From Lentzea sp. NBRC 102530 (GTDB lineage: Bacteria > Actinomycetota > Actinomycetes > Mycobacteriales > Pseudonocardiaceae), in NCBI RefSeq assembly GCF_030269365.1, contig NZ_BSTF01000002.1, positions 434,001-498,000 of the forward strand: a DNA stretch of 64,000 bases, given 5' to 3'. Shown here piece after piece: positions 45,845 to 63,381 of this stretch. Made by a program: the position numbers and the translations under genes. How positions within the stretch are numbered: the first letter of the stretch is position 1; each line of letters starts with the position of its first letter. Under the pieces are notes generated by a model, which did not search any database, was not told the origin of the DNA, and worked only from the letters and a program-made list of their open reading frames with translations.

Positions 45845-46245
45845 CCCACCAGCTTTCCAGACGTCGTCACGACACGGGCGCGCCAGGCCGAACGCCCATG
45901 CCAGCCGATCAAGGAATTGGATTTGTTTTTCCTATTGCGGCGAGGTGCGGCACGGCCGAACGGGTGAAGGCGCGAATTCGCGGTAGCTCGGCGTAACGCT
46001 CGGAGTGGGCGGCTCGATCACATTGGCGCCTGGACGTCATGAAACGCAGGCGAACGCTACCGGGGCGTTCGCGGGCGGTCTGAAGAAAAGGCCGACAGAA
46101 TGCGCGAAGCATGTCCGATATCAGCTCTGAGCTGGTGTTATCTGCGAAAGTGGACATCCTGTCGGCGATTTTCTGGACAGAAGTAGGACAAAGTCCTCAA
46201 TGCTGTCGTCTAACGCTTCGTCGTGCCGATCGGAGAGGACGAGTC
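45845..46245. other. Divergent intergenic region with GGACA motifs
   Basis: A 401-bp gap between the AfsR-type gene and the chaperone/signalling operon. It is less GC-rich than its surroundings (for example around 45910-45940). GGACA occurs at 46152-46156, 46175-46179 and 46186-46190, and inverted TGTCC at 46112-46116. No CIRCE or HAIR heat-shock operator was seen. An in-frame ATG at 46111 exists, but the residues it would add look non-coding. Confidence 0.5.
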
Positions 46246-49191
46246 GTGCCCGGAGAAAGCCTGAACGTGCTGACCGGATCACCTGAGTCGGGTCAGCGGA
46301 GCCCGACTTGCCGCGGGTGTGCCACGCCGAGAGAAAACAGCGACAGGTTCTGCGGGAACTGCGGGCTGCCGGCCGACGCGGTCGTGGTGGCGCGCACGGA
46401 GGCCCCGCCGCTCCCGGCGCCGCCGCCCCGGCCGGAACGGAGAGCGGGAGCCGACATCGGCGAGGTGACCCGCCTCGCCGGCACGACGAGGCAGACGCAC
46501 CTGACGTCGTTGCTGTCCGCTCCGGCGCCCCTTTGCGTCGCGTGCGGTGCGGACATGGCGGACGGGCCGTGCGCGTCCTGTGGCACGCAACCGGACTTCC
46601 TGGCAGCACCGCCACAAGACGCCATCGGCGGTGTGTTCGAGTACCGCAAGATGCTGCGCAAGCGCCGGGCGATGCGCATCGGGACGAGCGCCGAGGGACC
46701 GTTGTTCCTCCTGCACGACGGCACCGTCGAGGCCCGCGACCCGGCCACGCTGAAGCCCGCGCCGATCCCTTTGCCCGCAGGAGAACACGAGTGGTTGAGC
46801 CCGGCGGCCGTGGTGCTGCGGATCGCGCTTGCCGTGGACTCGGCGCAGGTGAGTCTGCCGTGGACGTCCCGCGTGCTGCTCGACCACGCTTTCGCTCACG
46901 CCCGGTCGCACCTCGGGCTGGGCCGCCGCCTCGCGCTGGACGCGATGAACCTCGGCCACGTCGACCTCGCCGCCCACTGCGGGCTCGGCGAGTCCGAACA
47001 GGCTTGGCTGCGGCTGCTCTCGGCGGCCCGGCGCGGTGACGCCGCCGACCTGGTCGACGCGGCCGCCGCCCTGCCACCGGACCGGTACCGGCCCAAGATC
47101 GCGGCACTGGCGGTGTTCGCGGGAGCGGTACGCGGGGTGCGCGGTGCGGCGGAACGACTCGCGCCGTCACTGGCGGCCTTCGCGGAGACGGAACCGCTCG
47201 CAGGTCTCCTGCAACGCGCGCTCGGCATCACCGCCACCACGCCCGCTCGCCGTCGCGCGGACGTCGCGTTGCTGGCGGGGCTGGTCAACGCCCCCGCGCC
47301 GGTCCTCGCACTCGCCACCGCGTCGTTGCCCGAGATCGGTCTGGAGGACGCGCGACTGCTCGGCGCCAAGGGCAAGGTCGCGGCACTGCACGGCACGCCC
47401 CGCTCAGCCTCCGGCCTCGTCTCCGGGAGTGATCTCGACGCCGCACCGCTGTCCGTCGTGGACGGTTTGGCCGATGCGGGAGTGCTGACCGCCCAGCAGG
47501 TCCAGGGCCTGCGCCGGACCCCGGACGAGATCGCCTACCTGCTCGCCAGGACCAGTCCGCAGGACCTCACCGACGAGCAGGTGGTCCAGTCGGGCCACGT
47601 GGACGAGCAGGTGCGGCGCACGCACGAACGCGGGGTCGCCGACGCGGGCGAGAAGGCACCGGACTGCGCGATGGGCCGGCACCTGCGCGTCCTGGAGGCG
47701 TTGTCCCGCAACAGACTCGACGACGTGCGGACCGACGAGGCGTTGCCGGAGCACGCCGAGACCGTCAACAGACTGGTCACGGGCCTGCGCCGGGCCGCCG
47801 AGCAGGGCGACGCGACCGCCGCGCTGGACGAGGTCGTGTTGGGCGACCGCACCACCTGGCAGCCGTTGGTGACCGCGCTGGGCGCCAGTGCCTTGCTGCA
47901 CGGCGAGGTCGCGCGCAGGAGGGTCCCCGCCTTCGCCGACTGGCTCTCCCTGGTGGCGGCCAGGGAACGGCTGTTCGTCGCCGACTGGGCAGGTGCCGCG
48001 TACGAGGCGAGGAACTGCCTCGCGCACGCCACCGACGAGGCGGTGCGCGACGAGGCGCACAACCTGCTGGCGTGCGCCCTGCACCACCTGGGCCAGCACG
48101 GAACAGCGCTCGGCGAGCTGGAAGCGGCGATCGAGGGCGAGTACTCGGTCGCGCTGCTCGCCAACATCGCCGTCGTCGCGATGCACCTCGACCGGGAACT
48201 CGGCGCCCGGCACCTCGCCAGGGTCGTGCGCGAGGCGCCGTCCCAGGCGATGCGGGCCAACGCCGCTTTGCGCGCCATGCGGATGTGGCGCAGCGACGGG
48301 TCGAAGATCTGGGAGGGTGAGGACCGCGCGGCCGACAAGCTGCCCGCGATGCTGCGCGAGCCGTTGCGGACGATCGTCACGCAGCCCATCGGTCTCGACG
48401 AGTTCCGCGAGGTCGCCGACGTGCTCGCCCGGTTCGACGCGGAATGGCTGCGCGCGCCGCAGAGCCTCGCCGGATCTCCGCACCGGGCCACGCTCGAAGC
48501 GACGTTCTACCGCGCCAGGGCCAGCGAGGACATGTACACGGCGATCGTGAACGTGCTCGGCACGATCACCGACTGGGCCGGTGCGCCGGACTGGATCCGC
48601 GAGGAACGCGACGACCTGGTGCACCAGACGAAGGAGTACCTGTTCGACCACCTCGACGACCCGGACAACGTCGCCGGTGTCGTGGCGCTCGCGATCGCCC
48701 GCCAGGTCACCGGACTCGCGAAGTACGACCACGTCTGCTTGCTGCTGCTGGGAACCGCGACGCTGACCTACCACGTCACCACCCGCGAGGAGGAGATCGC
48801 GGTCTCCCTCGTCGAGTCCTACCTCGCGGCCCGGCAGGCGGCCACGACCCTCACCGAGGACCAGCAGGAGAGGCTCACCGGGCTGCTGGAACTCACCCAG
48901 CGCCGCATCGGGTTCAACCTCTACCAGGCACGGGAGCGCGAGGTCGAGGCCAGGATCGACACCTACAACCGCGCGCTCGGCCTGCTCAACCAGGCGCAGA
49001 CGGGCAGTCCCGCCTGGTTCGCGGGGCGGCAGGAAGTCGCCGCGACCGTCGACATGTGCACGCGGGTCCGTGAGCAGCTCACGCCGTGGGTGCGCGGAGC
49101 CGACAGCGGAGACCTGCGCTCGTTGCTCATGGACCTCCTCGAGCACGTCCGCGAGCTGGAGACCAAGGCCCGCCGCGTGCTGGGCAACTGA
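46246..49191 (+). CDS. Large double zinc-ribbon, helical-repeat scaffold protein
   Basis: A 981-residue protein that I do not recognise as a named family. Two zinc ribbons open it: Cys22, 25, 36, 39 and Cys97, 100, 109, 112, separated by a Pro-rich linker. A short beta segment follows (FEYRKMLRKRRAMRIG), and from about residue 190 the protein is almost entirely helical with TPR-like stretches (AHNLLACALHHLGQHGTALG, about 605-625). No catalytic motif. It probably serves as a scaffold or sensor for the genes behind it. GTG 46246 follows GGAGAGGA. Confidence 0.7.
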   Translation: MPGESLNVLTGSPESGQRSPTCRGCATPRENSDRFCGNCGLPADAVVVARTEAPPLPAPPPRPERRAGADIGEVTRLAGTTRQTHLTSLLSAPAPLCVACGADMADGPCASCGTQPDFLAAPPQDAIGGVFEYRKMLRKRRAMRIGTSAEGPLFLLHDGTVEARDPATLKPAPIPLPAGEHEWLSPAAVVLRIALAVDSAQVSLPWTSRVLLDHAFAHARSHLGLGRRLALDAMNLGHVDLAAHCGLGESEQAWLRLLSAARRGDAADLVDAAAALPPDRYRPKIAALAVFAGAVRGVRGAAERLAPSLAAFAETEPLAGLLQRALGITATTPARRRADVALLAGLVNAPAPVLALATASLPEIGLEDARLLGAKGKVAALHGTPRSASGLVSGSDLDAAPLSVVDGLADAGVLTAQQVQGLRRTPDEIAYLLARTSPQDLTDEQVVQSGHVDEQVRRTHERGVADAGEKAPDCAMGRHLRVLEALSRNRLDDVRTDEALPEHAETVNRLVTGLRRAAEQGDATAALDEVVLGDRTTWQPLVTALGASALLHGEVARRRVPAFADWLSLVAARERLFVADWAGAAYEARNCLAHATDEAVRDEAHNLLACALHHLGQHGTALGELEAAIEGEYSVALLANIAVVAMHLDRELGARHLARVVREAPSQAMRANAALRAMRMWRSDGSKIWEGEDRAADKLPAMLREPLRTIVTQPIGLDEFREVADVLARFDAEWLRAPQSLAGSPHRATLEATFYRARASEDMYTAIVNVLGTITDWAGAPDWIREERDDLVHQTKEYLFDHLDDPDNVAGVVALAIARQVTGLAKYDHVCLLLLGTATLTYHVTTREEEIAVSLVESYLAARQAATTLTEDQQERLTGLLELTQRRIGFNLYQAREREVEARIDTYNRALGLLNQAQTGSPAWFAGRQEVAATVDMCTRVREQLTPWVRGADSGDLRSLLMDLLEHVRELETKARRVLGN

Positions 49192-49205
49192 ACGGAGGCA
49201 GTGCG

Positions 49206-49607
49206 ATGGACAACCGCAACCCGTACCTGCTGCTGGGCGTGGACTACGGTGCCGACGCCGCGACGGCCCGCCGGTCGTTCGCCCGCGCCGCCAGGAGGAT
49301 GCGCCGCGCGGGCGGGGACGCGTCGATCTCGATCGAGGACCTCAACCGGGCCCTGCACGAGATCCAGCAACGCGACCACGACCCGGCCGACGCCGTGGAC
49401 CAGTTCCGCGTGCCGGCCAACCCCGAGGTGTTCCGGCCGGGCAGCACCGGCGCGTTCGCTCCCGGCCCGCTGCCGCTGGCCCGCGCGACCGCCGTGAGCG
49501 AGTCCGATGTGGACGTTCTGGAGGACTGGCTCGCGGACGACCTCTGGGAACTGCTGGGCGCCGTCGCACCCCGCCTCACCCAGTTCGACGACGGATACCC
49601 CCGGTAG
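49206..49607 (+). CDS. J-domain-like protein lacking HPD
   Basis: A 133-residue protein. NPYLLLGVDYGAD (residues 5-17) and the basic helix ARRSFARAARRMRR (21-34) match helices I and II of a DnaJ J-domain, and IEDLNRALHEIQQ matches helix III. The loop where HPD should be reads AGGDASIS, so the motif that stimulates Hsp70 ATPase is absent. The C-terminal half is acidic and unmatched. It lies one gene before a GrpE-like and two before an Hsp70-like gene, which supports a co-chaperone origin. ATG 49206 follows GGAGG. Confidence 0.65.
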   Translation: MDNRNPYLLLGVDYGADAATARRSFARAARRMRRAGGDASISIEDLNRALHEIQQRDHDPADAVDQFRVPANPEVFRPGSTGAFAPGPLPLARATAVSESDVDVLEDWLADDLWELLGAVAPRLTQFDDGYPR

Positions 49608-49620
49608 GAGAGGACAGTCG

Positions 49621-50115
49621 ATGACGCGCAAGACCAGGGAAGCCGCAGCCCGGCTGGAGCGGCTCGAGCACATGGTCGACGGCATCAGCCGGTCGATCGA
49701 GAAGATCGAGGTCGCGACGATCGTGCGCGACCCGTCGTCCGGCCTGGCGGCCGAGGCGTACGAGGGGCTGCGCAAGCAGGTCATCGCTGCGGCGGGTGAC
49801 CGGATGAGACACCTGCACCAGCTCGCGCGCTTCGCCGAGGCGATCGACTCGGGGCACGTCGCGGCGTTGCCGGACCTCGTGCGCGAGTGGACGGCCCAGG
49901 CCGGGCTGCTCAAGATCCACGACCCCGCTGACGTGCGCTGCTACGAAGTGCTCGGCGGCGAGGGAGACCAGTTGCGGGTGCTGAGGTTCGCCTACGTCGA
50001 CGAGATCACCGGCCGGGTCGTCGTCATGGGCCAGGCAGAGCGTGTGCAGTCCACAGTGGACTCGGGTGCGCACCGGCGGATGGACGTCGGTGACCAGGAA
50101 GAGGTGCGTTCGTGA
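49621..50115 (+). CDS. GrpE-like nucleotide-exchange factor
   Basis: A 164-residue protein. A long helical N-terminal part (AAARLERLEHMVDGISRSIE, probable coiled coil) leads to a small beta domain (GLLKIHDPADVRCYEVLGG and RVVVMGQAERV), the GrpE layout. Similarity is weak, so the call relies on layout and on the GTGA overlap with the Hsp70-like gene. It would release ADP from that Hsp70. ATG 49621 follows GGAGAGGA. Confidence 0.65.
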   Translation: MTRKTREAAARLERLEHMVDGISRSIEKIEVATIVRDPSSGLAAEAYEGLRKQVIAAAGDRMRHLHQLARFAEAIDSGHVAALPDLVREWTAQAGLLKIHDPADVRCYEVLGGEGDQLRVLRFAYVDEITGRVVVMGQAERVQSTVDSGAHRRMDVGDQEEVRS

Positions 50116-51818
50116 ACCCGTTCGGAATCGACTTCGGCACGACGAACTCCGTGCTGGCCCAGTGGAACGGCCGATCGGTGGACGTGCTGCCGATCGACAG
50201 CCCTCCGGCGGCGTGGGAGGCGATGGGGTTCGACAAGGTCATGCCTTCCGTCATCGGGATCGAGCCTTCCGGTGCGACGCGGTTCGGGTGGCACGGCAAG
50301 CAGATGGACGGGAACAAGCTCGAAGCCGTCAAGCGCTTGTTCGCGACCGAGGAGTTCGTCGAGATCGGCGGGCACTCGACGTCCGTCGAGGAGGCCGCGG
50401 CGCTTCTGTTCGGGCACATCCGCAGCGCGTCGCCGGGGCTCACCGTGGACCGGGCCGTCGTGACCATCCCGGCGAACAGCCGCGGGCTGGCGCGGTTCCG
50501 CACGAAGCTCTGCGCCGGTCTCGCCGGGATCGAGGTGCAGGCACTGTTGAACGAGCCCACCGCCGCGGCGATGGCGTACTCGGTCGACGCGACCCGCGAC
50601 CAGAACGTGCTGGTCTTCGACTGGGGTGGCGGCACGCTCGACGTCACCGTGCTGGAGACCATCGAGGGCGTGTTCATCGAGCGCGCCTCGAAGGGCATCC
50701 CCCGCAGCGGCGGCATCGACCTCGACGGTGCGTTCGGGCAGGCCGTGCTCGACGCGCTGCCGGTGCGGCCGTCGTGGAGCCCGGTCCAGCAGGCGCAGTT
50801 CCGGTTGGAGATCGAGCGCGCCAAGATCCTGCTGTCCACTCAGGACGAAGTGAACATGAGACTCCCGGACGGCAGGTACTTCCCCGTCACGAGGGCGATG
50901 TTCACCAAGTCGATCCGGTCGTACCTCGACGAGGCCCGGCGGCCGATCGAGCAGTGCCTCGCGGACCTGTCGATCAGCCCCGACTCGATCGACCAGCTCG
51001 TGATGGTCGGCGGCAGCAGCAAGATCCCCGCCGCCCGCACGATGGTGTCGGAGCTGCTCGGACGGGAACCCGCCGGCGGCTGCGACCCGATGACCGCGGT
51101 CGCCCAGGGTGCCGCCATCGCGTCGGCGATCCTGCTGGGACAGCTGGACAAGGACTTCTTCGTCGCGACCGAGCACGCGCTCGGCACCGTGATCCACGAC
51201 GACCACCAGCGGGCGAGCTTCAGCGTGCTGATCCCGCGCAACCACCAGCTGCCCGCCAAGGCGACCGACACCTACAACCCGGCGGTGCAGGGGCAGAAGG
51301 AAGTCCGGATCCAGGTCATCGAGGGCGACCCCGACAAGGGCATCGACCACGAGGACAACGTGATCCTGCGCGAGTGGAAAATCGCGGTCGACCCGGATCT
51401 CAGCATCATGGAGAACGCCTTCACGATCACCTACGAGTACAACGTCGACGGCATCCTGCACATCGTCGTGACCGAGATCAGGACCGGCAAGGTGTTGCTG
51501 CGCGACGACGTCTCGTGGGGTGTCACGAAGGACAGGTCGAAGCTCGTCGAGCTGGCCAAGCGGGTCAGCACCACGATCGACAACGGCTCCGTGAACGGCT
51601 CCGGCGCGCGGCACGCGGCCGTGCGCCCCGCCGATCCCGAGGTCGCGGCGCTCACCACCAAGGCGCGGTCGAAGGTCGTGCCGTTCGTCGACGACGAGGA
51701 GGCGTCGCGGATCGAGGCGATCTGCGCGGACCTGGAGAGCGCCACCGGCGCGGGCGTCGACGAGTGCAAGGAGGCGCTCTCCAGTGCGTTGCGCCCGTAC
51801 GCCTACCTCCTCGTCTGA
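50112..51818 (+). CDS. Divergent Hsp70 (DnaK-like) chaperone ATPase
   Basis: A 568-residue Hsp70 homologue. The nucleotide-binding domain is intact: GIDFGTTNSVLAQW (phosphate 1, residues 5-18), ALLNEPTAAAMAYSVD, VFDWGGGTLDVTVL (phosphate 2) and LVMVGGSSKIPAARTMV (adenosine). The linker region differs from the DnaK DLLLLDV-type sequence. The beta substrate-binding domain (RASFSVLIPRNHQLPAKA onward) is recognisable and the C-terminal lid is short with no EEVD-like tail. Likely a specialised chaperone rather than the housekeeping DnaK, whose own operon would be elsewhere. Confidence 0.9.
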   Translation: MNPFGIDFGTTNSVLAQWNGRSVDVLPIDSPPAAWEAMGFDKVMPSVIGIEPSGATRFGWHGKQMDGNKLEAVKRLFATEEFVEIGGHSTSVEEAAALLFGHIRSASPGLTVDRAVVTIPANSRGLARFRTKLCAGLAGIEVQALLNEPTAAAMAYSVDATRDQNVLVFDWGGGTLDVTVLETIEGVFIERASKGIPRSGGIDLDGAFGQAVLDALPVRPSWSPVQQAQFRLEIERAKILLSTQDEVNMRLPDGRYFPVTRAMFTKSIRSYLDEARRPIEQCLADLSISPDSIDQLVMVGGSSKIPAARTMVSELLGREPAGGCDPMTAVAQGAAIASAILLGQLDKDFFVATEHALGTVIHDDHQRASFSVLIPRNHQLPAKATDTYNPAVQGQKEVRIQVIEGDPDKGIDHEDNVILREWKIAVDPDLSIMENAFTITYEYNVDGILHIVVTEIRTGKVLLRDDVSWGVTKDRSKLVELAKRVSTTIDNGSVNGSGARHAAVRPADPEVAALTTKARSKVVPFVDDEEASRIEAICADLESATGAGVDECKEALSSALRPYAYLLV

Positions 51819-52473
51819 CAGCGCCCGGATCGTGCCGATCTACCTGGTGTGCGACCTGTCCGCCTCGATGGCGGCCGGTGATCGCACCAGGGCCCTGCAC
51901 GACTCCGTCACCGCGTTGCGCGACGCGATCTGGGCGAACCCGGTCGTGAGCGACACCGCGCGGGTCGCCGTGCTCGGGTTCGCGACCTCGGCGTGGGTCG
52001 TGCTCCCGTTGTGCGACATCGCGACGATCGACGAGATCCCGCCACTCGCCCCGGCCGGACTCACCAGCTACAGCGCCGCGTTCCGGCTCGTCGCCGCGAC
52101 GATCGAGGCGGACGTCGCGCAACTCGCGGCCGACGAGTTCGGCGTCTGGCGGCCGATGGTGTTCTTCATCAGCGACGGCGAACCGACCGACAGCCGCTCC
52201 GAGTGGCAGGCGGAGCACCGGCGGCTGCTGGATCCCTCCCTGCCGTGGCGTCCCGAGATCGTGTCGTTCGCGATCGGGGACGCCAACGCCGCGACGCTCG
52301 CCCAGGTGGCGACGACGAGGTGTTTCGCCGCCCGGTCCGGGGAGGTCGTGGAGAACGCGATCGCGGGTATCGCGGACCTCGTGATCCGCAGCGTGGTCGC
52401 CTCGGGCACAGCGGGCGCACCCGTGCTGCCCAGGGGCGTGCCCGCCGGGTTCGACGAGGTGGACGTCCTGTGA
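51784..52473 (+). CDS. TerY-like von Willebrand factor A protein 1
   Basis: A 229-residue vWA domain with a complete metal-ion-dependent adhesion site: DLSAS (Asp24, Ser26, Ser28), the Thr of GLTSYSAAF, and ISDGEPTD. Such single-domain vWA proteins resemble TerY and usually act as assembly platforms with kinases and phosphatases. GTG 51784 has AAGGAGG 9 bp upstream and overlaps the Hsp70-like gene by 35 bp; GTG 51832 would avoid the overlap but lacks a ribosome binding site. Confidence 0.87.
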   Translation: MRCARTPTSSSDSARIVPIYLVCDLSASMAAGDRTRALHDSVTALRDAIWANPVVSDTARVAVLGFATSAWVVLPLCDIATIDEIPPLAPAGLTSYSAAFRLVAATIEADVAQLAADEFGVWRPMVFFISDGEPTDSRSEWQAEHRRLLDPSLPWRPEIVSFAIGDANAATLAQVATTRCFAARSGEVVENAIAGIADLVIRSVVASGTAGAPVLPRGVPAGFDEVDVL

Positions 52474-53357
52474 AGGCGGCGGTCGTGCACGCGGCCGACG
52501 TGACCGAGGGCGATGTGCTGGGGGAGGGCGGGCAGGGCAGGGTCACCGAGGTGCGCGCGCTCCGCGGCGTGCCGGTGCGCGACCTCGTGGTCAAGCGGTA
52601 CCACGACGACATCGCGATCAACCCGGCCGCGCTCAGCCGGCTCGTGGCGGTGCGCCGGTCGATGTCCGAAGCGGACGCGGCGGCGCTGGACGAAGTGGCG
52701 TGCTGGCCACACGCGGTGCTGGTCGACGGTGACCGGGCGGTCGGCGCGCTGCTGCCGCGGGTTCCGGCCGGGTTCACGTTCGGGCTGCGCATGCCGGGAG
52801 GTGGTAGCTCGGTCGTGTTGCGGGAGTTGCAGTTCCTCATCGCCGACCCGAGGTCGTTGCGACGCAGGGGGATCGAGGATCCCGACGGCGCGACGCGTCT
52901 GCGGGTGCTCGCGCACTGCACCGAGGTCGGGGCGCTGCTGCACCGGCACGGTGTGGTGCTCGGTGATCTGTCGGTGAAGAACGTGCTGTGGTGCACAGGT
53001 CCCGCTGTCTACCTCGTCGACTGCGACGGCGTACGGCTGGGTGGTGCAGATCCCGTGTCGCCGCAACCGAACTCTCCGGGCTGGGACGACCCGTTGTTCC
53101 CCGGCACGCAGAACCAGCAGTCCGATGTGTACAAAACCGCCCTCGTCGTGTTGCGCACCGCGGCGAGGAACTTCCACACCAGAGACCCGGAACTCGCGGC
53201 GGACGTGCTGGGCCGCGGGCTCCTGCCGTTGCTGCGGGCCTCGCTGCACGCCGAGCCGGGCAGCAGGCCGCCGCTGCGGGCCTGGCGAGAACCGTTGCTG
53301 CGGCGGGCGGACGAACTCAGCACATCCACCACACCGGAAGGGGTGACCGGCCGATGA
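52470..53357 (+). CDS. TerY-P type protein kinase 1
   Basis: A 295-residue kinase-fold protein. GEGGQG (residues 18-23) is the nucleotide loop and Lys42 in VVKRY the phosphate anchor. LGDLSVKN is the catalytic loop with HRD changed to LGD, and VDCDGV replaces DFG. Key Asp, Lys and Asn residues remain, so activity is plausible. No membrane segment. Overlaps both vWA neighbours (GTGA and ATGA). Confidence 0.85.
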   Translation: MKAAVVHAADVTEGDVLGEGGQGRVTEVRALRGVPVRDLVVKRYHDDIAINPAALSRLVAVRRSMSEADAAALDEVACWPHAVLVDGDRAVGALLPRVPAGFTFGLRMPGGGSSVVLRELQFLIADPRSLRRRGIEDPDGATRLRVLAHCTEVGALLHRHGVVLGDLSVKNVLWCTGPAVYLVDCDGVRLGGADPVSPQPNSPGWDDPLFPGTQNQQSDVYKTALVVLRTAARNFHTRDPELAADVLGRGLLPLLRASLHAEPGSRPPLRAWREPLLRRADELSTSTTPEGVTGR

Positions 53358-54094
53358 GTGAGGACAAGGCCAAGCTGCTGCCGTTCTACCTGGTCATCGA
53401 CGTCTCGTACTCGATGGACGGCGAGAACATCCTGGCAGCCAATGACATCATGCCCTCGCTGCTCGAGGCGCTCGCACAGAACCCGATCCTGAGCGACAAG
53501 GTGAGGTTCTGCCTCATCGACTTCTCCGACGACGCGCAGGTCCTGCTGCCGTTGTGCGACATCCTCGATCCCGCGATGACGGTGACCGGCCTCGCGGTGC
53601 GGGGCGGCACGTCGTACGCGGCCGCGTTCCGGGTGCTGCGCAAGACGATCGAGAACGACGTCGCCCAGCTCAAGGGCGACCACTACAGCGTGCACCGGCC
53701 GGCCGTGTTCTTCCTGAGCGACGGCGAGACGACCGACGAGGACCACGAGTGGCGCGCGGCGTTCCGCGACCTCACAGAGTACGACCGGCAGACCGGCACC
53801 GGGTTCGCGATGTACCCGAACTTCATCCCGTTCGGTGTGGCGCAGGCGGACCCGTCGGCGCTGCAGCAGCTGATCCACCCGTCGACCGGCAGCAAGCAGA
53901 TGCGCATGTTCATGATGGACAAGGGCAACTCGCCGGCCGAGGCGATCAGGGCGATGGCCGAGATCCTGGTCTCCAGCGTGGTGAACTCGGGCAACGTCAT
54001 GGCGGGAGGCTCGTCCGGCATCGTGCTGCCGGACACCACCCAGCTCCCGGCGGGCATCAGCTCCTACGGCGCCGACGACGACGATTTCCTGTGA
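53354..54094 (+). CDS. TerY-like von Willebrand factor A protein 2
   Basis: A 246-residue vWA domain similar to the one at 51784. FYLVIDVSYSM (Asp16, Ser18, Ser20), RGGTSYAAAF and FLSDGETTD make a full metal site. It differs from the first in a longer C-terminal insertion around GSKQMRMFMMDKGN and in an acidic DDDDFL end. ATG 53354 overlaps the kinase stop. Confidence 0.88.
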   Translation: MSEDKAKLLPFYLVIDVSYSMDGENILAANDIMPSLLEALAQNPILSDKVRFCLIDFSDDAQVLLPLCDILDPAMTVTGLAVRGGTSYAAAFRVLRKTIENDVAQLKGDHYSVHRPAVFFLSDGETTDEDHEWRAAFRDLTEYDRQTGTGFAMYPNFIPFGVAQADPSALQQLIHPSTGSKQMRMFMMDKGNSPAEAIRAMAEILVSSVVNSGNVMAGGSSGIVLPDTTQLPAGISSYGADDDDFL

Positions 54095-54126
54095 CCGGAC
54101 GGACAACGCGCGACGAGGAGACACCG

Positions 54127-55089
54127 ATGTCCCGTGGCAAGCACGCGGCAGGCACCGAACTCGGCGAGGAGCCGGTGACCTGGGAGGAGGGCGCGCGGCC
54201 GTGCGCCGTCGGCGATCCCGGTAGGGCGGCGAGCACCGTGCTGACCGAACGGGACAGCAGGTTCCTGTTCCGCAACGACTTCCTGGTCGACGGCGCCCGG
54301 CTGCCCCGAGCGGACGCCCCGGTGGCCGACCTGCGCGCCGCGTGCGTGCGGGGCCTGAAGAACCGCTACTACGGCAAGGTGTGCCAGGACGACTACGGGT
54401 TCCTGGTCACGAAGGACGAGCAGTGGCTCGTGATCGCGGTGGCCGACGGCGTGGCGCAGGGCTCTCACTCACACGTCGCCGCTGGGATCGTCGCCCGTGG
54501 AGGCTGCGAGACGCTCGCGAAGGCGCTGGCCGACGAGCACCCTTCGCGGATCGACTGGACGAGGTTGCTGCACCGGCTCGCCGACGACGTCGTCCGTCAC
54601 GGGCAGCAGCACCTCGGCCTCAGAGACCGCGTCGACGTCTCGGGTACCCTGGCGACCACGGCGTTGTTCGCGATCGTCGGGCTGCAACCGGACGAGGACG
54701 GGTTCCTGCCGGCGTTCGTGCTGCCGTTCGGTGATTCGTCGGCGTGGCTGTTGCGGCCGCGCGACGGCCGGAAGTGGATCCCGTTGCAGGCGGTGAAGAA
54801 CGAGGGCAACGTGATCGCCACGTCCGCCACCGACGCGATTCCGCTGGTACCGCACGAACTCCCACCGGCTCTGGAGACGAGTCTCGCACCCGGAGAGGCG
54901 CTCGTGCTGATGACCGACGGCGTAGGTGACCCGCTCGGCACGGGTGACGGAGAGGTCGGCCGGTTCCTCGCCGACGCCTGGAGCTCACCGCCCGAAGCGC
55001 TCACGTTCGCGTCGCAGGCGAACTTCGCGCGGCGCAGCTTCGACGACGACCGCACCGTCGTGGCGGTGTGGCCGGTGCCCCGGCCGTGA
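54127..55089 (+). CDS. PP2C-family Ser/Thr phosphatase
   Basis: A 320-residue PP2C phosphatase. QDDYGFL (Asp88/Asp89), AVADGVAQGSHSH (Asp107, Gly108), LPFGDSSAWLL, LMTDGVGDPLG and FDDDRTVVAVW supply the metal-binding aspartates. About 75 residues precede the domain and are unmatched. ATG 54127 with GAGGAG is chosen; GTG 54091 is an alternative overlapping the vWA stop. It would reverse the work of the two kinases. Confidence 0.88.
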   Translation: MSRGKHAAGTELGEEPVTWEEGARPCAVGDPGRAASTVLTERDSRFLFRNDFLVDGARLPRADAPVADLRAACVRGLKNRYYGKVCQDDYGFLVTKDEQWLVIAVADGVAQGSHSHVAAGIVARGGCETLAKALADEHPSRIDWTRLLHRLADDVVRHGQQHLGLRDRVDVSGTLATTALFAIVGLQPDEDGFLPAFVLPFGDSSAWLLRPRDGRKWIPLQAVKNEGNVIATSATDAIPLVPHELPPALETSLAPGEALVLMTDGVGDPLGTGDGEVGRFLADAWSSPPEALTFASQANFARRSFDDDRTVVAVWPVPRP

Positions 55090-56054
55090 CCGACGAGGTG
55101 GACCTCGCGGAGCTGGGCGAGGTCGGCCGGCAGATCGGCAAGGGCGGCCAGGCGATCGTGTACCTCGCGCCCGGCCTCACCCTGCCCGACGTGTCAGGAC
55201 CGCTGGTCTACAAGGCATACCTGGGTCAGCAGTCGGCACCGCACGGCCTGCGCGCGATCGTCCGCGTGCGCAGCGCGATGGACACCCGCGACCGGCAACG
55301 CCTCGACACCGTCGCGGCCTGGCCGGTCCGGGTGGTGCGGTGCGAGGGACGCGTGGTCGGGGTGCTGATGCCGTTGATCCCGGACTCCTTCTTCCAGGAG
55401 CGGTTCCTGCCCACCGGTCGGCCCAGCCGCGATCCACGTGAGGCGCAGAACCTGTTCGTGGCGCCGGAACTGGCGGTGCGCCTGGGCATGCCGTCGTTGA
55501 CCGGGGCGGACCGGATGGCGGTGTGCCGGGATTTGGCAGGGGCGTTGTCGTTCCTGCACGACAAAGGAATCGTCTATGGCGATGTGAACGCCAAGAACGA
55601 GCTCTTTCGGCTTGCCCCGGAGCCGACGGTGATGCTGGTGGACTGTGATGCGGTGAGGATTCGGGGGAGTGCCGCGGTTGTGCGGCAGTTGAGCGCGCCG
55701 GACTGGGATCCGCCGGAGGGCGCGGTCCTCACCCAGGCCACCGATGTGTACAAGCTGGCGTTGTTCGTGCTTCGGGTGCTCACGCCGGGTCCGCAGGCCT
55801 CCACGGCGCGGGATCCGGAACGGGTGCGGCGGATGCTCGACGGTGCCGGGTGGGACCTGCTGGCGCGGTCGTTGTCAGTGCGGGCCAAGGACCGTCCGCC
55901 GGCTTCGGCCTGGTACGCCTACCTGGCTCGGCGAACGCCTCGGCGTGGTTCCACGGCGGTCGATGTGGCGCGGGTGGCGGAGCCGCGGGCGCCGATGGTG
56001 ACGAGCGGGTGGCGGCGGGATCCGGCTACCGGCAGATGGGTGCCGGCGACGTGA
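55086..56054 (+). CDS. TerY-P type protein kinase 2
   Basis: A 322-residue kinase-fold protein. GKGGQA (residues 18-23), Lys43 in LVYKAY, YGDVNAKNELF (HRD changed to YGD) and VDCDAVR (DFG changed to DCD) mirror kinase 1. C-terminal Arg-rich tail with GWRRDPATGRWVP, a short motif often seen at the ends of actinobacterial proteins. GTG 55086 overlaps the PP2C stop. Last gene of the plus-strand operon; 10 bp separate it from the convergent protease gene. Confidence 0.85.
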   Translation: MTDEVDLAELGEVGRQIGKGGQAIVYLAPGLTLPDVSGPLVYKAYLGQQSAPHGLRAIVRVRSAMDTRDRQRLDTVAAWPVRVVRCEGRVVGVLMPLIPDSFFQERFLPTGRPSRDPREAQNLFVAPELAVRLGMPSLTGADRMAVCRDLAGALSFLHDKGIVYGDVNAKNELFRLAPEPTVMLVDCDAVRIRGSAAVVRQLSAPDWDPPEGAVLTQATDVYKLALFVLRVLTPGPQASTARDPERVRRMLDGAGWDLLARSLSVRAKDRPPASAWYAYLARRTPRRGSTAVDVARVAEPRAPMVTSGWRRDPATGRWVPAT

Positions 56055-56064
56055 GCCGCGTGGG

Positions 56065-57117
56065 TCAGGGGGCGTTCTTGGGTCGTGTGCGGGTCCACAC
56101 CATGCGGCCGCCCTGCTGTTCCCAGCACGTTCGCAGGTCGTCGATGTCGATCATGACGCCGGGTTTCCAGGTGGGGTCGTTGGCGATGAAGCCGACGAGC
56201 TTGCCTTCGAACTTGACGGTTCCGGTGATGTAGAGGCTGTGGCGATGCGGATGGGGGTGCGCTTCACTGGCGGAGCGCAGCCGCTCGGGGAGCTTGTCGT
56301 AGCGCTCGATCATCTCGTGGGCGTCGACGTCGACCGCGACGCCGTATCCCTTGTCCACAAGTGCCGCCACGTCCTCGACGCCCATGTCGTCCAGCTTGTA
56401 GGCGTCGAGACCGAGCGACTTCAGCAATGCGATCTGCTGGTCGCGGGTGGTGCCACCCCACTGCGCCTTGTCCTCGCCGTCCGTCTTGCACAGGCCTTGG
56501 TCGATGGCCGATTGCACGTGCTCGTCCGGCGTCCTCTCCACGCCCTGCAGCGCCGCCATCTCCCGCGTGTTCTCGAGTCCGCAGGTGTTCTTGGGTCCCA
56601 CGTGGTTGTGGTCCTGCCGGTTCCACACCTTGACCGCCTCCAGTGGACGGCCTCCGATCTGAACGTCCGGGTAGTCGTTCAACGCCCCGATGCGCTTCTC
56701 GGCGATGATCCGCTTGGTGTAGTCGCGTGCGGTCACGTCGGCAGGGGCCAGGCCGATCTTCTGGAGGAGCCGGAATGCGCCGTCGTCCTGGGAACCGGAG
56801 GACCCTGACGAGTCGTCGACGAAGGCGGTCATCGCGTGGTCCTTGGGCGCGAGACGGGCGTCCGAGGACCGCTTCAGCGGCTCGTAGTCGAGTTTACTCG
56901 ACACGTCCGGTGCCGCGGGCCGTTCGGCGGGCGGCTGGGCGAGGTCGTGCTGGCGGGCGCCGGACAGACCCAGGTGACCGAGCCGGCGTTCGAGCTTGTT
57001 GTGTTCCGGAGCGAGCTCGTGGTTCGGGGCTGTTTCGGGTTTGGTCTTCGGCTCCACCTCGAAGGCCGGTCTGAACTCAGGCGTCTCGTGGCCGCCGCCG
57101 AACCTCTCCACGGTCAT
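56065..57117 (-). CDS. Papain/C39-like cysteine protease-fold protein, possible toxin
   Basis: A 350-residue protein. The first ~110 residues are polar, Pro- and Glu-rich and probably disordered. The C-terminal part has the papain-like triad: Cys179 in GPKNTCGLENT, His293 in HRHSLYITG and Asn313/Asp314 in IANDPTW. Related domains occur in C39 peptidases and in polymorphic toxins. No signal peptide. ATG 57117 overlaps the HerA-like stop (ATGA). It could be an effector cut loose by, or acting on, the neighbouring machinery, but this is an inference. Confidence 0.7.
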   Translation of the reverse strand: MTVERFGGGHETPEFRPAFEVEPKTKPETAPNHELAPEHNKLERRLGHLGLSGARQHDLAQPPAERPAAPDVSSKLDYEPLKRSSDARLAPKDHAMTAFVDDSSGSSGSQDDGAFRLLQKIGLAPADVTARDYTKRIIAEKRIGALNDYPDVQIGGRPLEAVKVWNRQDHNHVGPKNTCGLENTREMAALQGVERTPDEHVQSAIDQGLCKTDGEDKAQWGGTTRDQQIALLKSLGLDAYKLDDMGVEDVAALVDKGYGVAVDVDAHEMIERYDKLPERLRSASEAHPHPHRHSLYITGTVKFEGKLVGFIANDPTWKPGVMIDIDDLRTCWEQQGGRMVWTRTRPKNAP

Positions 57118-59858
57118 ACCTCCCACAGCGGTTTGAGCAGGAACGCGGGCCAGCTGGAGTCAAGTCCTGTCTGGTCCAGGGCACGGGTCAGGCGGAACGC
57201 GGGTGCTCCCTCTGCGAGGGACGACGTGAGGTCGTCGATGACCGGTGGCTCACCGCCCAGCACGGCGCGAGTGGGCACCCCGTCGCGGTCGGCGAGATCG
57301 GCGACGGCCGAGAGCTGCTCGGCCCAGGTGGTTCCGGGCACGTCGAGGCCCGCCTTCCGCCACGCGGCGGTGCGCGGGTGGGGAACGGCCGGGTCGTCGC
57401 CGGGACCGGGTCCGGCCAGCAGGGCGGTGACGATGCGGGCCCAGCGGAACTGGCCGACGCGCCACCGCGGTTCCGGCCTGCCGACGACAGCGCCGGAACC
57501 AGCTTGGTCCCGCATCACCTGCCCGACCTGCCGGGCCAGGTCACTCGGGGCGTACCAGCGCAGGACGTGCACGCTGCGGCGCGCGGTCGAGGCGTCGGCG
57601 GCCGCGGCGATCGCGCAGTCGAGGATCGGTGGCGGTTCGGCGTGCAGGCGGGCGCGGAACGCCGGGGACAGCGCGCCGAGTTGCTCGCCGCAGAGGTGGG
57701 CGATGGTCGTGATCTCCGCCCACAAAGAGATCGCCGGGCCTTCGGGCAGGTGTTCGGCGCGCACGATGCGGTCCAGGGGGCAGGCGCACCGAGATGGGCA
57801 TGCCGGGCCGCGCGGCGAGACCGGAGGTGTTGTGATCACGGGAGAGCGGGACTCGCGGGCGCGTCCCGCCGCGTCGACGGCCACCAGGACCGGTCGGTCC
57901 ATGCCGTCGGCGTGGGCCGCGGCGACGCCGGGGGAGAGGCTGACGACGTGCTGCGACTGGTCGTCGTCGAGGTTCATGGTGGCGCCCACGAAGTCGCGGT
58001 CGTCCTGGGCGGGCAGGCGGTGCACCAGTTTGACGGCGCTGTTCTTCACCACGTCCGGGAGGAGTTTGGCCGGGATCTGCTCGGCCACGACGATGCCCTC
58101 GCCGTACGCGCGGACCTCGGCGAAGAGGTTCGCGAACAGCGTGACGGCCTGAGCTGCGGCGGTGCCCGGTTCCACGTGCCGCAGCAGGCGGTGAGCTTCC
58201 TCCACGACGGTCACGTGCGCCAGGCCCGGACGCACGAGGCCGTGTTTCTCGCGCAGGCGCAGCCATTCGAACATCCGCAGCATCACGCAGCCGATGAAGA
58301 ACGCCTTGTCGTTGTCGTCGCCCAGGTCCTCGATCTCGAAGATGGTGTTGCGGGTCAGCAGGCGGTCGAGGTCGAGGCGGTGGCCGCCCTCGAAGAAACG
58401 GCCGGGGGTGCCCGTGCTGAGGCTGCCGATCCGCACGCTCACGAAGCCCCGCATGTTGCGCTCGCTCTCCGGGCCGTAGCCGATGTCGTCGACGGCGGCG
58501 AGCGCGTGGCGTTGCAGGTCGCTGAGCGTTGGCCAACGGGGGAGCACGCGCGGCGCCGCGACCAGGGACTCGCCGAGGGGCAGGTTCCAGCCGAGAGACG
58601 TGTAGCAGCTCGTCAGGGCGCGGGCGAGGATCTGGGGGAACGGTTCCTGCGCGTCGAACGAGGCGGTGAACAGGGCCCGCACCATGTCCACGTGCGTCTG
58701 CAACGGGAAGTGGACGCGCCGGCCCGCCACGACGGTCGAGCTGGGTTCCAGCGGGTTGAGGGAGGCGGGGACGGCACCGGGCGTGCCGGGTCGGATCACC
58801 AAGACCTCGGCGGGGGCGATCCGGCCGGCGATCGCCGCGTACTCGGCCTTGGCGGGCTCGACCACGAGCCACGGGATCTTCCTGCCGGACAACGCTTCCA
58901 GCAAGGTGCGCACAGTCTGTGACTTGCCCGCACCGGTGGCGCCGGTGACGAAGACGTGCCGGTTCACGCTGTCGGCCGACACGCCGAACGGCAGCGACGG
59001 CGTGTCCGTTCCGTCGAGCACGCGGCCGAGCACCAGGTCGCCGGACGTCTCGGGGGTGCGGTCGAACGCCGGGGTGGTGGTGACCCGGATGCCCGGCAGT
59101 TCGCGCAGCGGTGGCCGCAGCAGCGCCGTCACGGCGGGCGTCGCCGCATCGCACGCGACGCCCCAGTCCAGGCCCGACCTGGGGCCCGTGGACCGCACCC
59201 GCACCGGGCCGTCGACGCCGCTGACCATCGCGGCGAGCGCGCCGGCCACGCCCTCGTCCTGCCCGGCGGTCCACACCCGCAGCCGCCACGCGCCGAGCGC
59301 GAACGCCTGGTCGAGGTGTTTGAGCTCGGCCTCGGCCCGCGCCAGGCGGAGGCGTTCCGAACCCCGTCCCGAACGCCGCCGTTCCAGGTCGTCGATCAGG
59401 TCGGACAGGTCGGTGACCCGGGATTCCACGGAGGACACCGGGCACGGTTCGGCGACGACGAACAACGCGGCCGGACGGTCCGGCACCAACTCGAACACGT
59501 CGTCGAGCACGGGAGGCGGTTCGTCGGGTTCCTCCCGCAGGCCGTCCAGGGCGAGTTCGGCGGGACGCCAGTGCGGCAGCCGGCCGACCGCGCGGGCGAG
59601 CTGGTCCGGGCGCAGCGCGGATCCCTTCGCGCCGGGCGGGAACGGCACCGCGGTGTCGGTCGCGACCCCGCCCACCAGCAGCGCGAACCGGCCGTGCGGA
59701 CGGGTGCGGATCCAGCAGCACGCGACGGTGCGCCCAGCGGCGTGTGCGAGGGCGAGTTGGGGCAGCAACCGGGCGCGCAGTTCGGTCAGGTCTTCCAGGC
59801 GTGGCAAGGAAAGCACCTGGTGCGTCAGCAGCGTCGTCTCGGCGGGAGGCATGGTCAC
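57114..59858 (-). CDS. HerA/FtsK-like P-loop ATPase
   Basis: A 914-residue HerA-type ATPase. Walker A reads VTGATGAGKSQTVR (near residue 305) and Walker B VTVVEEAHRLL (near residue 550). ALSGRKIPWLVVEPAKAEY and IVVAEQIPAKLLPDVVKNS are also typical of DUF87/HerA proteins found in defence and DNA-processing systems. The first ~280 residues and the last ~250 are unmatched. GTG 59858 overlaps the upstream stop (GTGA); ATG 59852 is an alternative. The frame continuing to 60386 is a shadow. Confidence 0.85.
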   Translation of the reverse strand: MTMPPAETTLLTHQVLSLPRLEDLTELRARLLPQLALAHAAGRTVACCWIRTRPHGRFALLVGGVATDTAVPFPPGAKGSALRPDQLARAVGRLPHWRPAELALDGLREEPDEPPPVLDDVFELVPDRPAALFVVAEPCPVSSVESRVTDLSDLIDDLERRRSGRGSERLRLARAEAELKHLDQAFALGAWRLRVWTAGQDEGVAGALAAMVSGVDGPVRVRSTGPRSGLDWGVACDAATPAVTALLRPPLRELPGIRVTTTPAFDRTPETSGDLVLGRVLDGTDTPSLPFGVSADSVNRHVFVTGATGAGKSQTVRTLLEALSGRKIPWLVVEPAKAEYAAIAGRIAPAEVLVIRPGTPGAVPASLNPLEPSSTVVAGRRVHFPLQTHVDMVRALFTASFDAQEPFPQILARALTSCYTSLGWNLPLGESLVAAPRVLPRWPTLSDLQRHALAAVDDIGYGPESERNMRGFVSVRIGSLSTGTPGRFFEGGHRLDLDRLLTRNTIFEIEDLGDDNDKAFFIGCVMLRMFEWLRLREKHGLVRPGLAHVTVVEEAHRLLRHVEPGTAAAQAVTLFANLFAEVRAYGEGIVVAEQIPAKLLPDVVKNSAVKLVHRLPAQDDRDFVGATMNLDDDQSQHVVSLSPGVAAAHADGMDRPVLVAVDAAGRARESRSPVITTPPVSPRGPACPSRCACPLDRIVRAEHLPEGPAISLWAEITTIAHLCGEQLGALSPAFRARLHAEPPPILDCAIAAAADASTARRSVHVLRWYAPSDLARQVGQVMRDQAGSGAVVGRPEPRWRVGQFRWARIVTALLAGPGPGDDPAVPHPRTAAWRKAGLDVPGTTWAEQLSAVADLADRDGVPTRAVLGGEPPVIDDLTSSLAEGAPAFRLTRALDQTGLDSSWPAFLLKPLWEV

Positions 59859-61381
59859 GGTCCCAGTGGTGTCGGTGACGTGCGGCCGGACCGGGCGATC
59901 GCCGGGTCGCAGAACGTGATCATCGCGGTGCGGCCGTTGCGGTACAGCGCGACACCGTCGTCGAGGCGCTGGAACGTCTCCGGCGGCACCACGTGCTCGT
60001 GCACGCGTCCCCAGCTCGTCTGGCTGGTGACGCCCGTCGAACCACCGGTCCCGTGCGTCGTGCTGGTGCTGGTGCTCAACGAGGTCGACACGGACTTGCC
60101 GAAGTTGCGGCCGAAGTTGAGCGCGCCGGTGAGCGTCCCGCTGCTGCTGGACCCGGAACTCCGGCTGGTGCTGGTGCTGACCCCGACGGTCTTGGCCTGG
60201 GACTCGTTCCACTGCTCGGTCTCGTTCTCCGACAACGAGAAACCGTTGACCACGAAGGTGAACTCCTTGCCGAACTGGTTGGCGGCGAACTCCGCGTCCT
60301 GCCGGTTCGGCAGTCTCGCCCACAGCGCGGCGTCGGCGCCGCCGTGCCCGACGACGGTCTGCGCCTCCTGGGTCACCCTGCCCCACAGAAGGACCAGCTG
60401 TTTGCCTGGACGTTGCGAGGTGCTCATGAGCGCGTCGAGCACCTCGGGGGCGAGTGCCTCGGCACCCGCCACGACGAGCAGGTCCGGCAGCTTGTACGGG
60501 GCCGCGAACGCGAGCATCGACGTGCGGGCCAGCAACTCCCGCGCGAGTTCCGCGTCCTGCGTGCTGCCGCCGCGCTCGGCCTCGTAGGTGCGGACGCGGA
60601 ACGGGCCGCCGCCGGACGTCCTGGCCGCGCGGGCGGGATCACGGGCGTAGGCGAGCAACCCGGCCAGGTCGCCGTGCAGGTCGTTCAGCCGGGCGGCCAC
60701 GTGCTGGCTGCCGCTCACGACGTCGGCGCGGTAGTCGCGCAGGTCGCTGTCCTCGCGCCGGCTGAACGAGGTGGTGATCGTCCGCGGCGGGTGCCCGAGC
60801 AGCAACGCGATCGCGTCGCGCAGCCGGACCAGGTCGTTGGAAACGTCGAGGAGTTGTTGCACACGGCCGAGTTCCTGCCTGGCCCGCAACGCGTCGTTGC
60901 GCCCCTGTCCGCCCGCGGCCGGTCGCAGCACGTCCGTCACGAGCGCCGCGAGCTCGTCCGGCGTGCGCTTGCCGAAGACGTCCACTGTGGAGCCCCGGGC
61001 GGACAGCACGTCGGACCGGACGGCAGGAACGCCGGGCGCGCGCCGCACCGGGTCGAACAGGTCCATCTGGGTGAGGTTGACCAGGCGCACCCGGCCGGGG
61101 AACGACATCGAGAACGTGACCAACAGGCTTGACCACAACGCCGCCGTGCCACCGAACACCGGCAGCAGGGGCACGTCGTCCCACACCATCACCGGGTACC
61201 ACGCGGGTTGGGTGTGGTGCAAGGTGATGATCCGCTGCTGGTCGTCCTCGACCTGCTTGCGCCACAGGGCGTTGGCCTGCGCCGGGTCGATGCCGGAGGC
61301 GGGTGGCGGTCGGTCGAAGTACGGGCTGACCGGCATCGGACCGTGGGCCACCGCCTGCCAGCCGAGCACGAGCCCGCTCAC
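59855..61381 (-). CDS. HerA-associated protein with Ser/Thr-rich region
   Basis: A 508-residue protein of unknown family. The N-terminal part (YFDRPPP, then VFGGTAALWSSLLVTFSMSF) is alpha/beta-like. A long helical middle (RQELGRVQQLLDVSNDLVRL) follows. About residues 410-470 are rich in Ser, Thr and Gly (STSTSRSSGSSSSG). It heads the unit with the HerA-like ATPase and the protease-like gene. GTG 61381 has GGAGG 6 bp upstream; a second GTG precedes it. Confidence 0.7.
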   Translation of the reverse strand: MSGLVLGWQAVAHGPMPVSPYFDRPPPASGIDPAQANALWRKQVEDDQQRIITLHHTQPAWYPVMVWDDVPLLPVFGGTAALWSSLLVTFSMSFPGRVRLVNLTQMDLFDPVRRAPGVPAVRSDVLSARGSTVDVFGKRTPDELAALVTDVLRPAAGGQGRNDALRARQELGRVQQLLDVSNDLVRLRDAIALLLGHPPRTITTSFSRREDSDLRDYRADVVSGSQHVAARLNDLHGDLAGLLAYARDPARAARTSGGGPFRVRTYEAERGGSTQDAELARELLARTSMLAFAAPYKLPDLLVVAGAEALAPEVLDALMSTSQRPGKQLVLLWGRVTQEAQTVVGHGGADAALWARLPNRQDAEFAANQFGKEFTFVVNGFSLSENETEQWNESQAKTVGVSTSTSRSSGSSSSGTLTGALNFGRNFGKSVSTSLSTSTSTTHGTGGSTGVTSQTSWGRVHEHVVPPETFQRLDDGVALYRNGRTAMITFCDPAIARSGRTSPTPLGP

Positions 61382-61473
61382 CACGCACCTCCGGAAGTCG
61401 TTGTGCCGGAACCTCTTCCGCAACCGGCGGGTCGGGGCCTATCGTCGGCGGCACCCGGTGCGAGGAGGTCGCG

Positions 61474-61974: not shown

Positions 61975-61987
61975 CGGTGCCGCCATC

Positions 61988-63327: not shown

Positions 63328-63381
63328 CCATCAATTCGTCCACGATTTGTCCACTTCCTGCGGACGGATTCGGCGGCGGTC

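What the first reader, a model, noticed from the sequence alone, without database searches (positions are those of the whole stretch)
46246..56054. Hsp70/GrpE/J-like module fused in one operon with a duplicated vWA-kinase-PP2C signalling module
Nine plus-strand genes read as one unit, most through ATGA/GTGA overlaps: zinc-ribbon scaffold, J-like, GrpE-like, Hsp70-like, vWA, kinase, vWA, PP2C, kinase. TerY-P triads of vWA, kinase and PP2C are known from comparative genomics; having a dedicated chaperone trio upstream and two copies of vWA and kinase is unusual. A workable model is that the kinases and phosphatase set the state of a vWA-scaffolded complex that the Hsp70 assembles or disassembles. 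This is the best candidate here for an undescribed system.
Basis: partly seen in the sequence, partly recalled or inferred. Interest (0 to 1): 0.88.

Follow-up and report, generated by a model that had tools for sequence, protein, structure and literature searches.

The report
Phospho-gated Hsp70 immune island
A bacterium, likely a Lentzea, carries a 20.7-kilobase block of genes, missing from the same spot in the close relatives compared, that encodes an Hsp70 chaperone with predicted helper proteins in one run with two kinase-like proteins and a phosphatase, and that likely works as an anti-virus alarm which would release a nearby predicted suicide (TIR) protein.

Summary
The nine-gene run is real and at the stated coordinates: five of eight junctions are 4-nt overlaps, the other three are 13-14 nt. 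The same nine genes stand in the same order in G031 and G655 (two other genera); G662 has seven. The run is half of a ~20.7-kb island (45862 to ~66578, past the window end): in seven of eight aligned congeners both flanks continue with 32-43 bp between them. The other half holds HerA, zinc-ribbon/TM and TIR-NACHT-like genes. The J-like and GrpE-like proteins match no Pfam family but are predicted to fold as J domain and GrpE. The J-fold lacks HPD in all 120 listed homologues, and the Hsp70 lacks the arginine and linker aspartate that HPD acts on. Kaur 2020 described both halves as separate themes of GTPase systems; no GAP1 or GTPase was found here. Best reading: a mobile conflict (immune) system with a dedicated chaperone set gated by phosphorylation. 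Function is inferred, untested.

The parts
46246..49191 (+). zinc-ribbon (four CxxC) + TPR-like protein, 981 aa
   Evidence: DZR and TPR hits below cut-off; CxxC at 22, 36, 97, 109; homologues in 12 loci incl. the window
49206..49607 (+). predicted J-fold protein without HPD, 133 aa
49621..50115 (+). predicted GrpE-fold protein, 164 aa
   Evidence: no sequence-profile match
50112..51818 (+). Hsp70 of a divergent subfamily (no R167, no linker D393 equivalents), 568 aa
51832..52473 (+). vWA1, MIDAS residues kept
52470..53357 (+). kinase-like 1 (VVK, GDLSVKN, DCD motifs kept)
   Evidence: (APH, below cut-off)
53354..54094 (+). vWA2, MIDAS residues kept
54091..55089 (+). PP2C phosphatase, metal-site acids kept
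55086..56054 (+). kinase-like 2 (VYK, GDVNAKN, DCD motifs kept)
   Evidence: (Pkinase, below cut-off)
56065..57126 (-). unknown 353-aa protein (convergent), 29% identical in G655
57114..59860 (-). HerA-like ATPase (start approximate), 57% identical in G655
59855..61423 (-). unknown 522-aa protein, 55% identical in G655
61474..61974 (+). 166-aa ORF, 40% identical in G655
61988..62758 (-). zinc-ribbon + transmembrane protein; homologue near all four family operons
62935..63327 (+). 130-aa ORF with N-terminal hydrophobic stretch; homologue in G655 and G662
63382..64000 (+). TIR-NACHT-like-HEAT protein, 1066 aa; runs past the window to about 66582 in contig numbering carried on from the window
   Evidence: TIR_2 31.7 bits, cut-off 28; HEAT_2 below cut-off; NACHT 16.5 bits, below cut-off 26.7
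45862..64000 (.). island; left edge 45861/45862, right edge about 66578, beyond the window

Best explanation
A 20.7-kb island, absent from the same site in the congeners compared, encodes in one nine-gene run an Hsp70 with a predicted J-fold protein lacking HPD, a predicted GrpE-fold protein and a zinc-ribbon/TPR-like protein, plus two vWA proteins, two kinase-like proteins and a PP2C phosphatase, and beyond them HerA-like and TIR-NACHT-like genes; it likely works as an immune alarm in which the chaperone set would sense protein-folding disturbance during infection and the kinase/phosphatase pair would set the threshold at which a TIR-type effector is released. Shown: gene content, order, conservation, island edges, kept catalytic motifs, loss of HPD and of its Hsp70 contacts. 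Inferred: that the proteins form one pathway, that the cue is infection, and that the TIR protein is the effector. Proposed mechanism (untested): the J-fold protein would dock on Hsp70 through its basic helix II but could not trigger hydrolysis the DnaJ way; phosphorylation by the operon's kinases, reversed by PP2C and organised on the vWA proteins, would replace the HPD trigger. When clients flood the Hsp70, the vWA/TPR scaffold would be remodelled and the effector freed. In three relatives a DA1-like HExGH metallopeptidase follows kinase 2 and may be a further effector; no such gene was found in the window.
For: Island: in seven of eight aligned congeners homology stops at 45861-45869 and resumes at 66575-66584; flanks are 0.05-5.0 kb apart in 15 of 23 other congeners against 22.8 kb here. 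Same operon plus HerA/ZnR-TM/TIR block, same order, in another genus (G655). Sporadic: this Hsp70 in 4 of 390 family genomes (lower bound). TIR match within about 12 kb of vWA2 in all four, while those genomes hold 10-15 TIR matches in 7-11 Mb (0.02-0.03 expected per 24 kb, my arithmetic), against 1 of 22 sister loci within about 10 kb. A GAP1-N2/DO-GTPase conflict system lies beside the operon in G662. Precedent: bNACHT25 needs DnaJ, with the HPD residues H33 and D35, for phage defence (PMC12169576, abstract and passages). HPD absent from the J loop in 120 of 120 listed (of 288 found); R167 position never R, D393 position V in 120 of 120 listed (of 1675 found); HPD-R167-D393 is a published trigger network (PMC7289447, PMC8215388, passages). 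Kinase, PP2C and MIDAS residues kept.
Against: No experiment. Outside the family none of the 8 cassette loci L015-L022 showed a TIR match in the DNA held (tblastn with one TIR query), so the TIR link is a feature of four genomes; window and G655 share one island and are not independent; the TIR proteins differ (TIR-NACHT-like-HEAT in window and, by homology, G655; a 203-aa TIR in G031; others in G662). Two DUF4407-type genomes, G051 and G703, have a TIR match 24-25 kb from vWA2, so distance limits matter and were chosen afterwards. No PADLOC family matches strongly. The core goes with DUF4407 in most family genomes and five cassette loci show no switch gene, so coupling is not obligatory. Loss of R167/D393 also covers Streptomyces Hsp70s whose loci gave no J-like match, so it does not prove co-evolution with this J protein. 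Defence islands gather unrelated systems.
Confidence: 0.38

Rival explanations
1. The chaperone-switch operon is a stress or envelope-signalling module (assembly or disassembly of a vWA-scaffolded complex), not immunity; the HerA and TIR genes are passengers in the same island.
For: The core occurs mostly with a DUF4407 membrane protein and with TIR in only 1 of 22 such loci; cassettes without switch or TIR match exist (e.g. L015, L021 with about 10-kb flanks); no TIR match near any of the 8 cassette loci outside the family.
Against: Sporadic, island-borne, TIR match near 4 of 4 operons in the family; a conflict system next door in G662.
Confidence: 0.29
2. Two independent modules (Zr-J-GrpE-Hsp70 cassette and vWA-PP2C-kinase core) are merely co-transferred and co-transcribed without functional coupling.
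For: Each is found without the other. On the vWA2 tree the four chaperone-linked rows are not resolved as one clade (one origin in 11% of bootstrap trees).
Against: 4-nt overlaps inside the switch and between GrpE and Hsp70, same gene order in three genera, permuted but still joined in Actinoplanes L022 and partly in L019; all 22 sister vWA2 form one side of a branch without the chaperone-linked ones, weak support 80/37.
Confidence: 0.22
3. It is a decayed GTPase-centred (GAP1-N2) system of Kaur 2020 that lost its GTPase and GAP1.
For: Shares the HSP70/GrpE/DnaJ-TPR theme and the kinase/PP2C/vWA theme of that paper; the Hsp70 beside GAP1 in G662 also lacks R167 (N there).
Against: GAP1-M matched in 1 of 16 genomes tested, not in the window's own; the Hsp70 beside GAP1 in G662 is more DnaK-like (336 bits) and keeps the linker D; the themes are described as non-overlapping.
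Confidence: 0.08

Closest known systems
GAP1-N2 GTPase-centric conflict systems, themes 2 and 3 (Kaur et al. 2020, PMC7159879)
   Same: Theme 2 has HSP70, GrpE and an FNIII protein fused to DnaJ or TPR; theme 3 has an active kinase, PP2C and stand-alone vWA; actinobacterial, in mobile neighbourhoods
   Different: No DO-GTPase or GAP1 hit in the island, and no GAP1-M in the own genome; two themes said to be non-overlapping are joined in one run; vWA and kinase are doubled; J-fold has no HPD
TerY-P triad (as described in passages of PMC11090510, which cites Anantharaman 2012 and Gao 2020; those two not read)
   Same: vWA + PP2C + kinase, attached to other conflict modules; duplicated vWA also seen in some Type III-A CoCoNuTs
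   Different: Kinases lack a zinc ribbon (no CxxC); the zinc ribbons sit on the TPR-like protein; chaperone set instead of a restriction system
bNACHT25 with host DnaJ (PMC12169576, abstract and passages)
   Same: NLR-like protein whose phage defence depends on the Hsp70/Hsp40 cycle; here a TIR-NACHT-like gene and an Hsp70 set share one island
   Different: bNACHT25 uses the housekeeping chaperone and needs HPD; here the chaperones are island-encoded and the J partner lacks HPD; the link to TIR is by neighbourhood only
DnaK-DnaJ-GrpE machine
   Same: Hsp70 NBD motifs kept; J-fold and GrpE-fold by prediction
   Different: HPD, R167 and D393 positions lost; separate from the genome's own dnaK-grpE locus

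Membership tests
Hsp70 (PF00012) | profile match over curated cut-off | tested here: met
   205.1 bits, cut-off 20.6
Hsp70 with canonical J trigger (DnaK type) | R167 and linker D393 | tested here: not met
   R in 0 of 120, V at D393 position in 120 of 120 listed homologues incl. the window; own DnaK keeps both
J-domain protein | J-domain fold | tested here: met
J-domain protein | HPD in the helix II/III loop | tested here: not met
   0 of 120 listed homologues; 4 of 120 hold the letters HPD only after helix III
GrpE | GrpE fold | tested here: met
GrpE | sequence-profile similarity to GrpE | tested here: not met
   no Pfam hit; hhalign to own GrpE probability 0.2
GAP1-N2 GTPase-centric system | DO-GTPase and GAP1 present | tested here: not met
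   no such hit among the island proteins scanned; GAP1-M absent from own genome
TerY-P triad | vWA + PP2C + kinase adjacent | tested here: met
   53354-56054; kinase Pfam score below cut-off, motifs kept
TerY-P triad | zinc ribbon or OB-fold fused to the kinase C-terminus | tested here: inconclusive
   no CxxC in either kinase, so no zinc ribbon of that type; OB-fold not tested
TIR-NACHT (NLR-like) effector | TIR and NACHT domains | tested here: inconclusive
   TIR_2 over cut-off; NACHT E 0.008, below cut-off
anti-phage defence system | protects against phage | not testable with these tools
   needs phage assays

The most novel reading that the evidence does not exclude
A private, mobile Hsp70 machine for immunity that has abandoned the universal HPD trigger: an HPD-less J protein, a GrpE-fold factor and an R167-less Hsp70 form a chaperone cycle driven by phosphorylation (two kinases, one PP2C, two vWA scaffolds) instead of J-stimulated hydrolysis, and it arms a TIR-NACHT NLR-like effector, i.e. 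a dedicated counterpart of the DnaJ-bNACHT25 axis.
Probability: 0.2. Interest if true: 0.93.

Novelty: new variant of a known kind. Interest (0 to 1): 0.74.

Why it matters
If right, bacteria have built an immune switch around a dedicated Hsp70, joining chaperone guarding (as in bNACHT25) with kinase/phosphatase thresholding. The HPD-less J protein with an Hsp70 lacking R167 and D393 is a natural test of how an Hsp70 can be driven without the canonical J trigger. The interchangeable core (chaperones or DUF4407 in front, DA1-like peptidase behind in relatives) also gives a rule by which such systems can be found.

Tried and rejected
GTPase-centred membership: GAP1-M searched in 16 genomes, matched in 1 (G161), not in the own genome (G655 and G662 were not in that call). 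Known defence families: PADLOC gave weak kinase hits (best MkoA 1.1e-6) and a weak PDC-M61B hit to Hsp70, and HerA hits for the neighbour. Plasmid carriage: no match for Hsp70 at 1e-60, one weak vWA2 match. Foreign composition: island GC 0.706 against flanks 0.715 and 0.703, so composition does not show it. Sequence link GrpE-like to GrpE by hhalign failed; only the predicted fold links them. A DA1-like gene in the window was sought and not found: hits at E 0.025 or worse only. Phylum-wide J search (396 genomes): the own gene, one 36-bit hit (G497, not followed) and four weaker hits that were not inspected. Names: the window's genus (Lentzea) and G031 (Actinophytocola gossypii, same 32,512-base contig) are inferred from names of protein hits; G655 and G662 are unnamed. 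My gene caller is a GC3 heuristic; starts are approximate. That the island was gained, not lost by relatives, is parsimony.

Papers. PMC7159879: passages and sections 27 and 29. PMC11090510: passages. PMC12169576: abstract and passages. PMC8195603: passages. PMC7289447 and PMC8215388: passages. Others appear as search listings only. No paper describing the joined operon turned up in the open library (listings of at most 20 rows each; some hit thousands of papers).
Full report

2. It is a conserved unit. In G031 (protein hits on its 32,512-base contig are labelled Actinophytocola gossypii) all nine genes recur in the same order (Hsp70 72%, vWA2 73%, kinase 2 66%). G655 (another genus, unnamed) has the same nine in order. 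G662 (same genus as G655) has Zr-J-GrpE-Hsp70-vWA2-PP2C-kinase 2 without vWA1 and kinase 1 in the run. In Actinoplanes (L022) the switch stands before the cassette: vWA1, vWA2, PP2C, kinase, Zr, J, Hsp70, with no GrpE or kinase 1 match. L019 has vWA1 beside the cassette and vWA2-PP2C divergent; L017 has vWA1.

3. It is modular. Family-wide (390 genomes) this Hsp70 was found in 4 but a close vWA2 (300 bits or more) in 25. I examined the 22 loci of the other 21 genomes: 20 have a kinase and a DUF4407 protein upstream of vWA2-PP2C, 14 of these 20 also a second kinase and a DA1-like gene downstream; 2 have a zinc-ribbon/TM homologue upstream and a kinase downstream (DUF4407 by Pfam in L142, 256 bits). 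A DA1-like gene follows kinase 2 in 3 of 4 chaperone operons, not in the window; HExGH is present in all 8 DA1-like sequences looked at. On the vWA2 tree (35 rows) the 22 sister rows are one side of a branch (80/37, weak); the chaperone-linked rows lie outside it but are not resolved as one clade. Of 12 loci with the chaperone cassette (window, G031, G655, G662, L015-L022; L022 without GrpE), 7 have switch genes in the DNA held and 5 (L015, L016, L018, L020, L021) do not; L016, L018 and L020 are contigs under 9 kb. The L loci come from a capped scan.

4. It is half of an island. The left neighbour (regulator, 42809-45844) is found in 23 of 24 genomes of the genus and the right neighbour gene in 20 of 24, own included. 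In 15 of the 23 other genomes the two lie on one contig 0.05 to 5.0 kb apart; here the distance is 22.8 kb. Of the other eight, four have them on different contigs or far apart and four lack one or both. Of eight relatives aligned, seven keep homology to 45861-45869 and again from 66575-66584 with 32-43 bp between; the eighth (L179) keeps it to 45844 and resumes at 68696. So operon and HerA/ZnR-TM/TIR block form one island; none of the 23 congeners had this Hsp70. The other half recurs in the same order in G655: unknown protein 29%, HerA 57%, 522-aa protein 55%, ORF 40%, ZnR-TM 39%, 130-aa ORF 67%, TIR protein 53% over 1070 residues; G655 has in addition the DA1-like gene and a 346-aa gene between. 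No integrase was noticed in the gene list, and composition equals that of the flanks.

5. TIR link. TIR_2 matches number 11, 10, 15 and 11 in the four genomes, i.e. 0.02 to 0.03 expected in a 24-kb stretch; each of the four operons has one within about 12 kb of vWA2. With a 10-kb limit it is 3 of 4 against 1 of 22 sister loci (Fisher p 0.006; limit chosen afterwards, a few sister stretches shorter). Against it: G051 and G703, DUF4407-type, have a TIR match 24-25 kb away, and none of the 8 cassette loci outside the family gave a TIR match in the DNA held. Window and G655 share one island, so there are three independent cases, with different TIR proteins. The window's protein has TIR over cut-off, NACHT and HEAT below cut-off.

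6. The chaperone set is not DnaK-like in its trigger. In the 120 listed J-like homologues (of 288) none has HPD in the J loop (four have the letters after helix III). In the 120 listed Hsp70 homologues (of 1675, own included) the R167 position is A (114), V (4), M (1) or gap (1), and the D393 position is V in all, within an invariant V-x-x-EHALG linker; the GGGT phosphate motif stays in 119. Published work makes D35 of HPD, R167 and D393 one network (PMC7289447, PMC8215388; passages). The same double loss covers 41 of the 80 scanned loci (L015-L053, L057, L061), including Streptomyces loci in which no J-like match was found, whereas 37 of the other 39 keep D393. So the Hsp70 clade left the canonical trigger before or apart from this J protein. 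The D481 position is D in the window.

7. Mechanism. Shown: inventory, order, island edges, kept kinase, phosphatase and vWA motifs, lost J trigger. Inferred: the kinases and PP2C act on the chaperone set; the vWA and TPR/zinc-ribbon proteins scaffold it; the cue is folding disturbance by phage; TIR (and DA1-like in relatives) are effectors. The bNACHT25 work, where an NLR-like protein needs DnaJ with a working HPD for phage defence (PMC12169576), makes a dedicated chaperone beside a TIR-NACHT-like gene plausible, but it also shows that the known case needs the trigger that is missing here.

8. Against known systems. Kaur 2020 describes HSP70-GrpE-DnaJ/TPR and kinase-PP2C-vWA as two of three non-overlapping themes of GTPase-centred systems. 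Here both are one run, with no GTPase or GAP1 hit; a GAP1-N2 system lies beside the operon in G662. It is therefore a new variant of a known kind, with one feature (an Hsp70 set without the J trigger) that I did not meet in the searches listed under Tried and rejected.

Noticed in passing
L140-L142, L145-L161: Kinase-DUF4407-vWA2-PP2C operons in 20 of 22 sister loci (14 with a second kinase and a DA1-like gene); only three papers in the library mention DUF4407 (listing only).
   Followed up: partly
L107:15662-16408, L097:7499-8197 (-), L108:5876-6577 (-): DA1-like zinc metallopeptidase (HExGH, CxxC pairs) closes the chaperone operon in G655, G031 and G662 but was not found in the window.
   Followed up: partly
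L171:701-10836: GAP1-N2/DO-GTPase system with vWA, Hsp70 and a second GTPase-like TM protein about 6 kb from the chaperone operon in G662.
   Followed up: partly
L023-L047 (mostly Streptomyces), e.g. L030:3830-12037: Another GrpE-like/Hsp70 pair of the same Hsp70 clade; in L030 it lies behind 1245-aa and 579-aa proteins; no J-like match.
   Followed up: no
L017:4218-5546, L019:2092-3456: An about 440-aa protein of unknown fold directly upstream of vWA1 beside the cassette, 63% identical between the two.
   Followed up: no
window 56065-57126 (-): 353-aa protein without Pfam match, 29% identical in G655; a peptidase-like look (Cys and His stretches) is a guess, untested.
   Followed up: no
G497:C1:4582791-4583132: Possible remote J-like homologue (36 bits) outside the family.
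   Followed up: no
L017, L019, L022 vWA1: MIDAS threonine replaced by serine in vWA1 beside cassettes outside the family, reminiscent of the second vWA in Type III-A CoCoNuTs that lacks the threonine.
   Followed up: no
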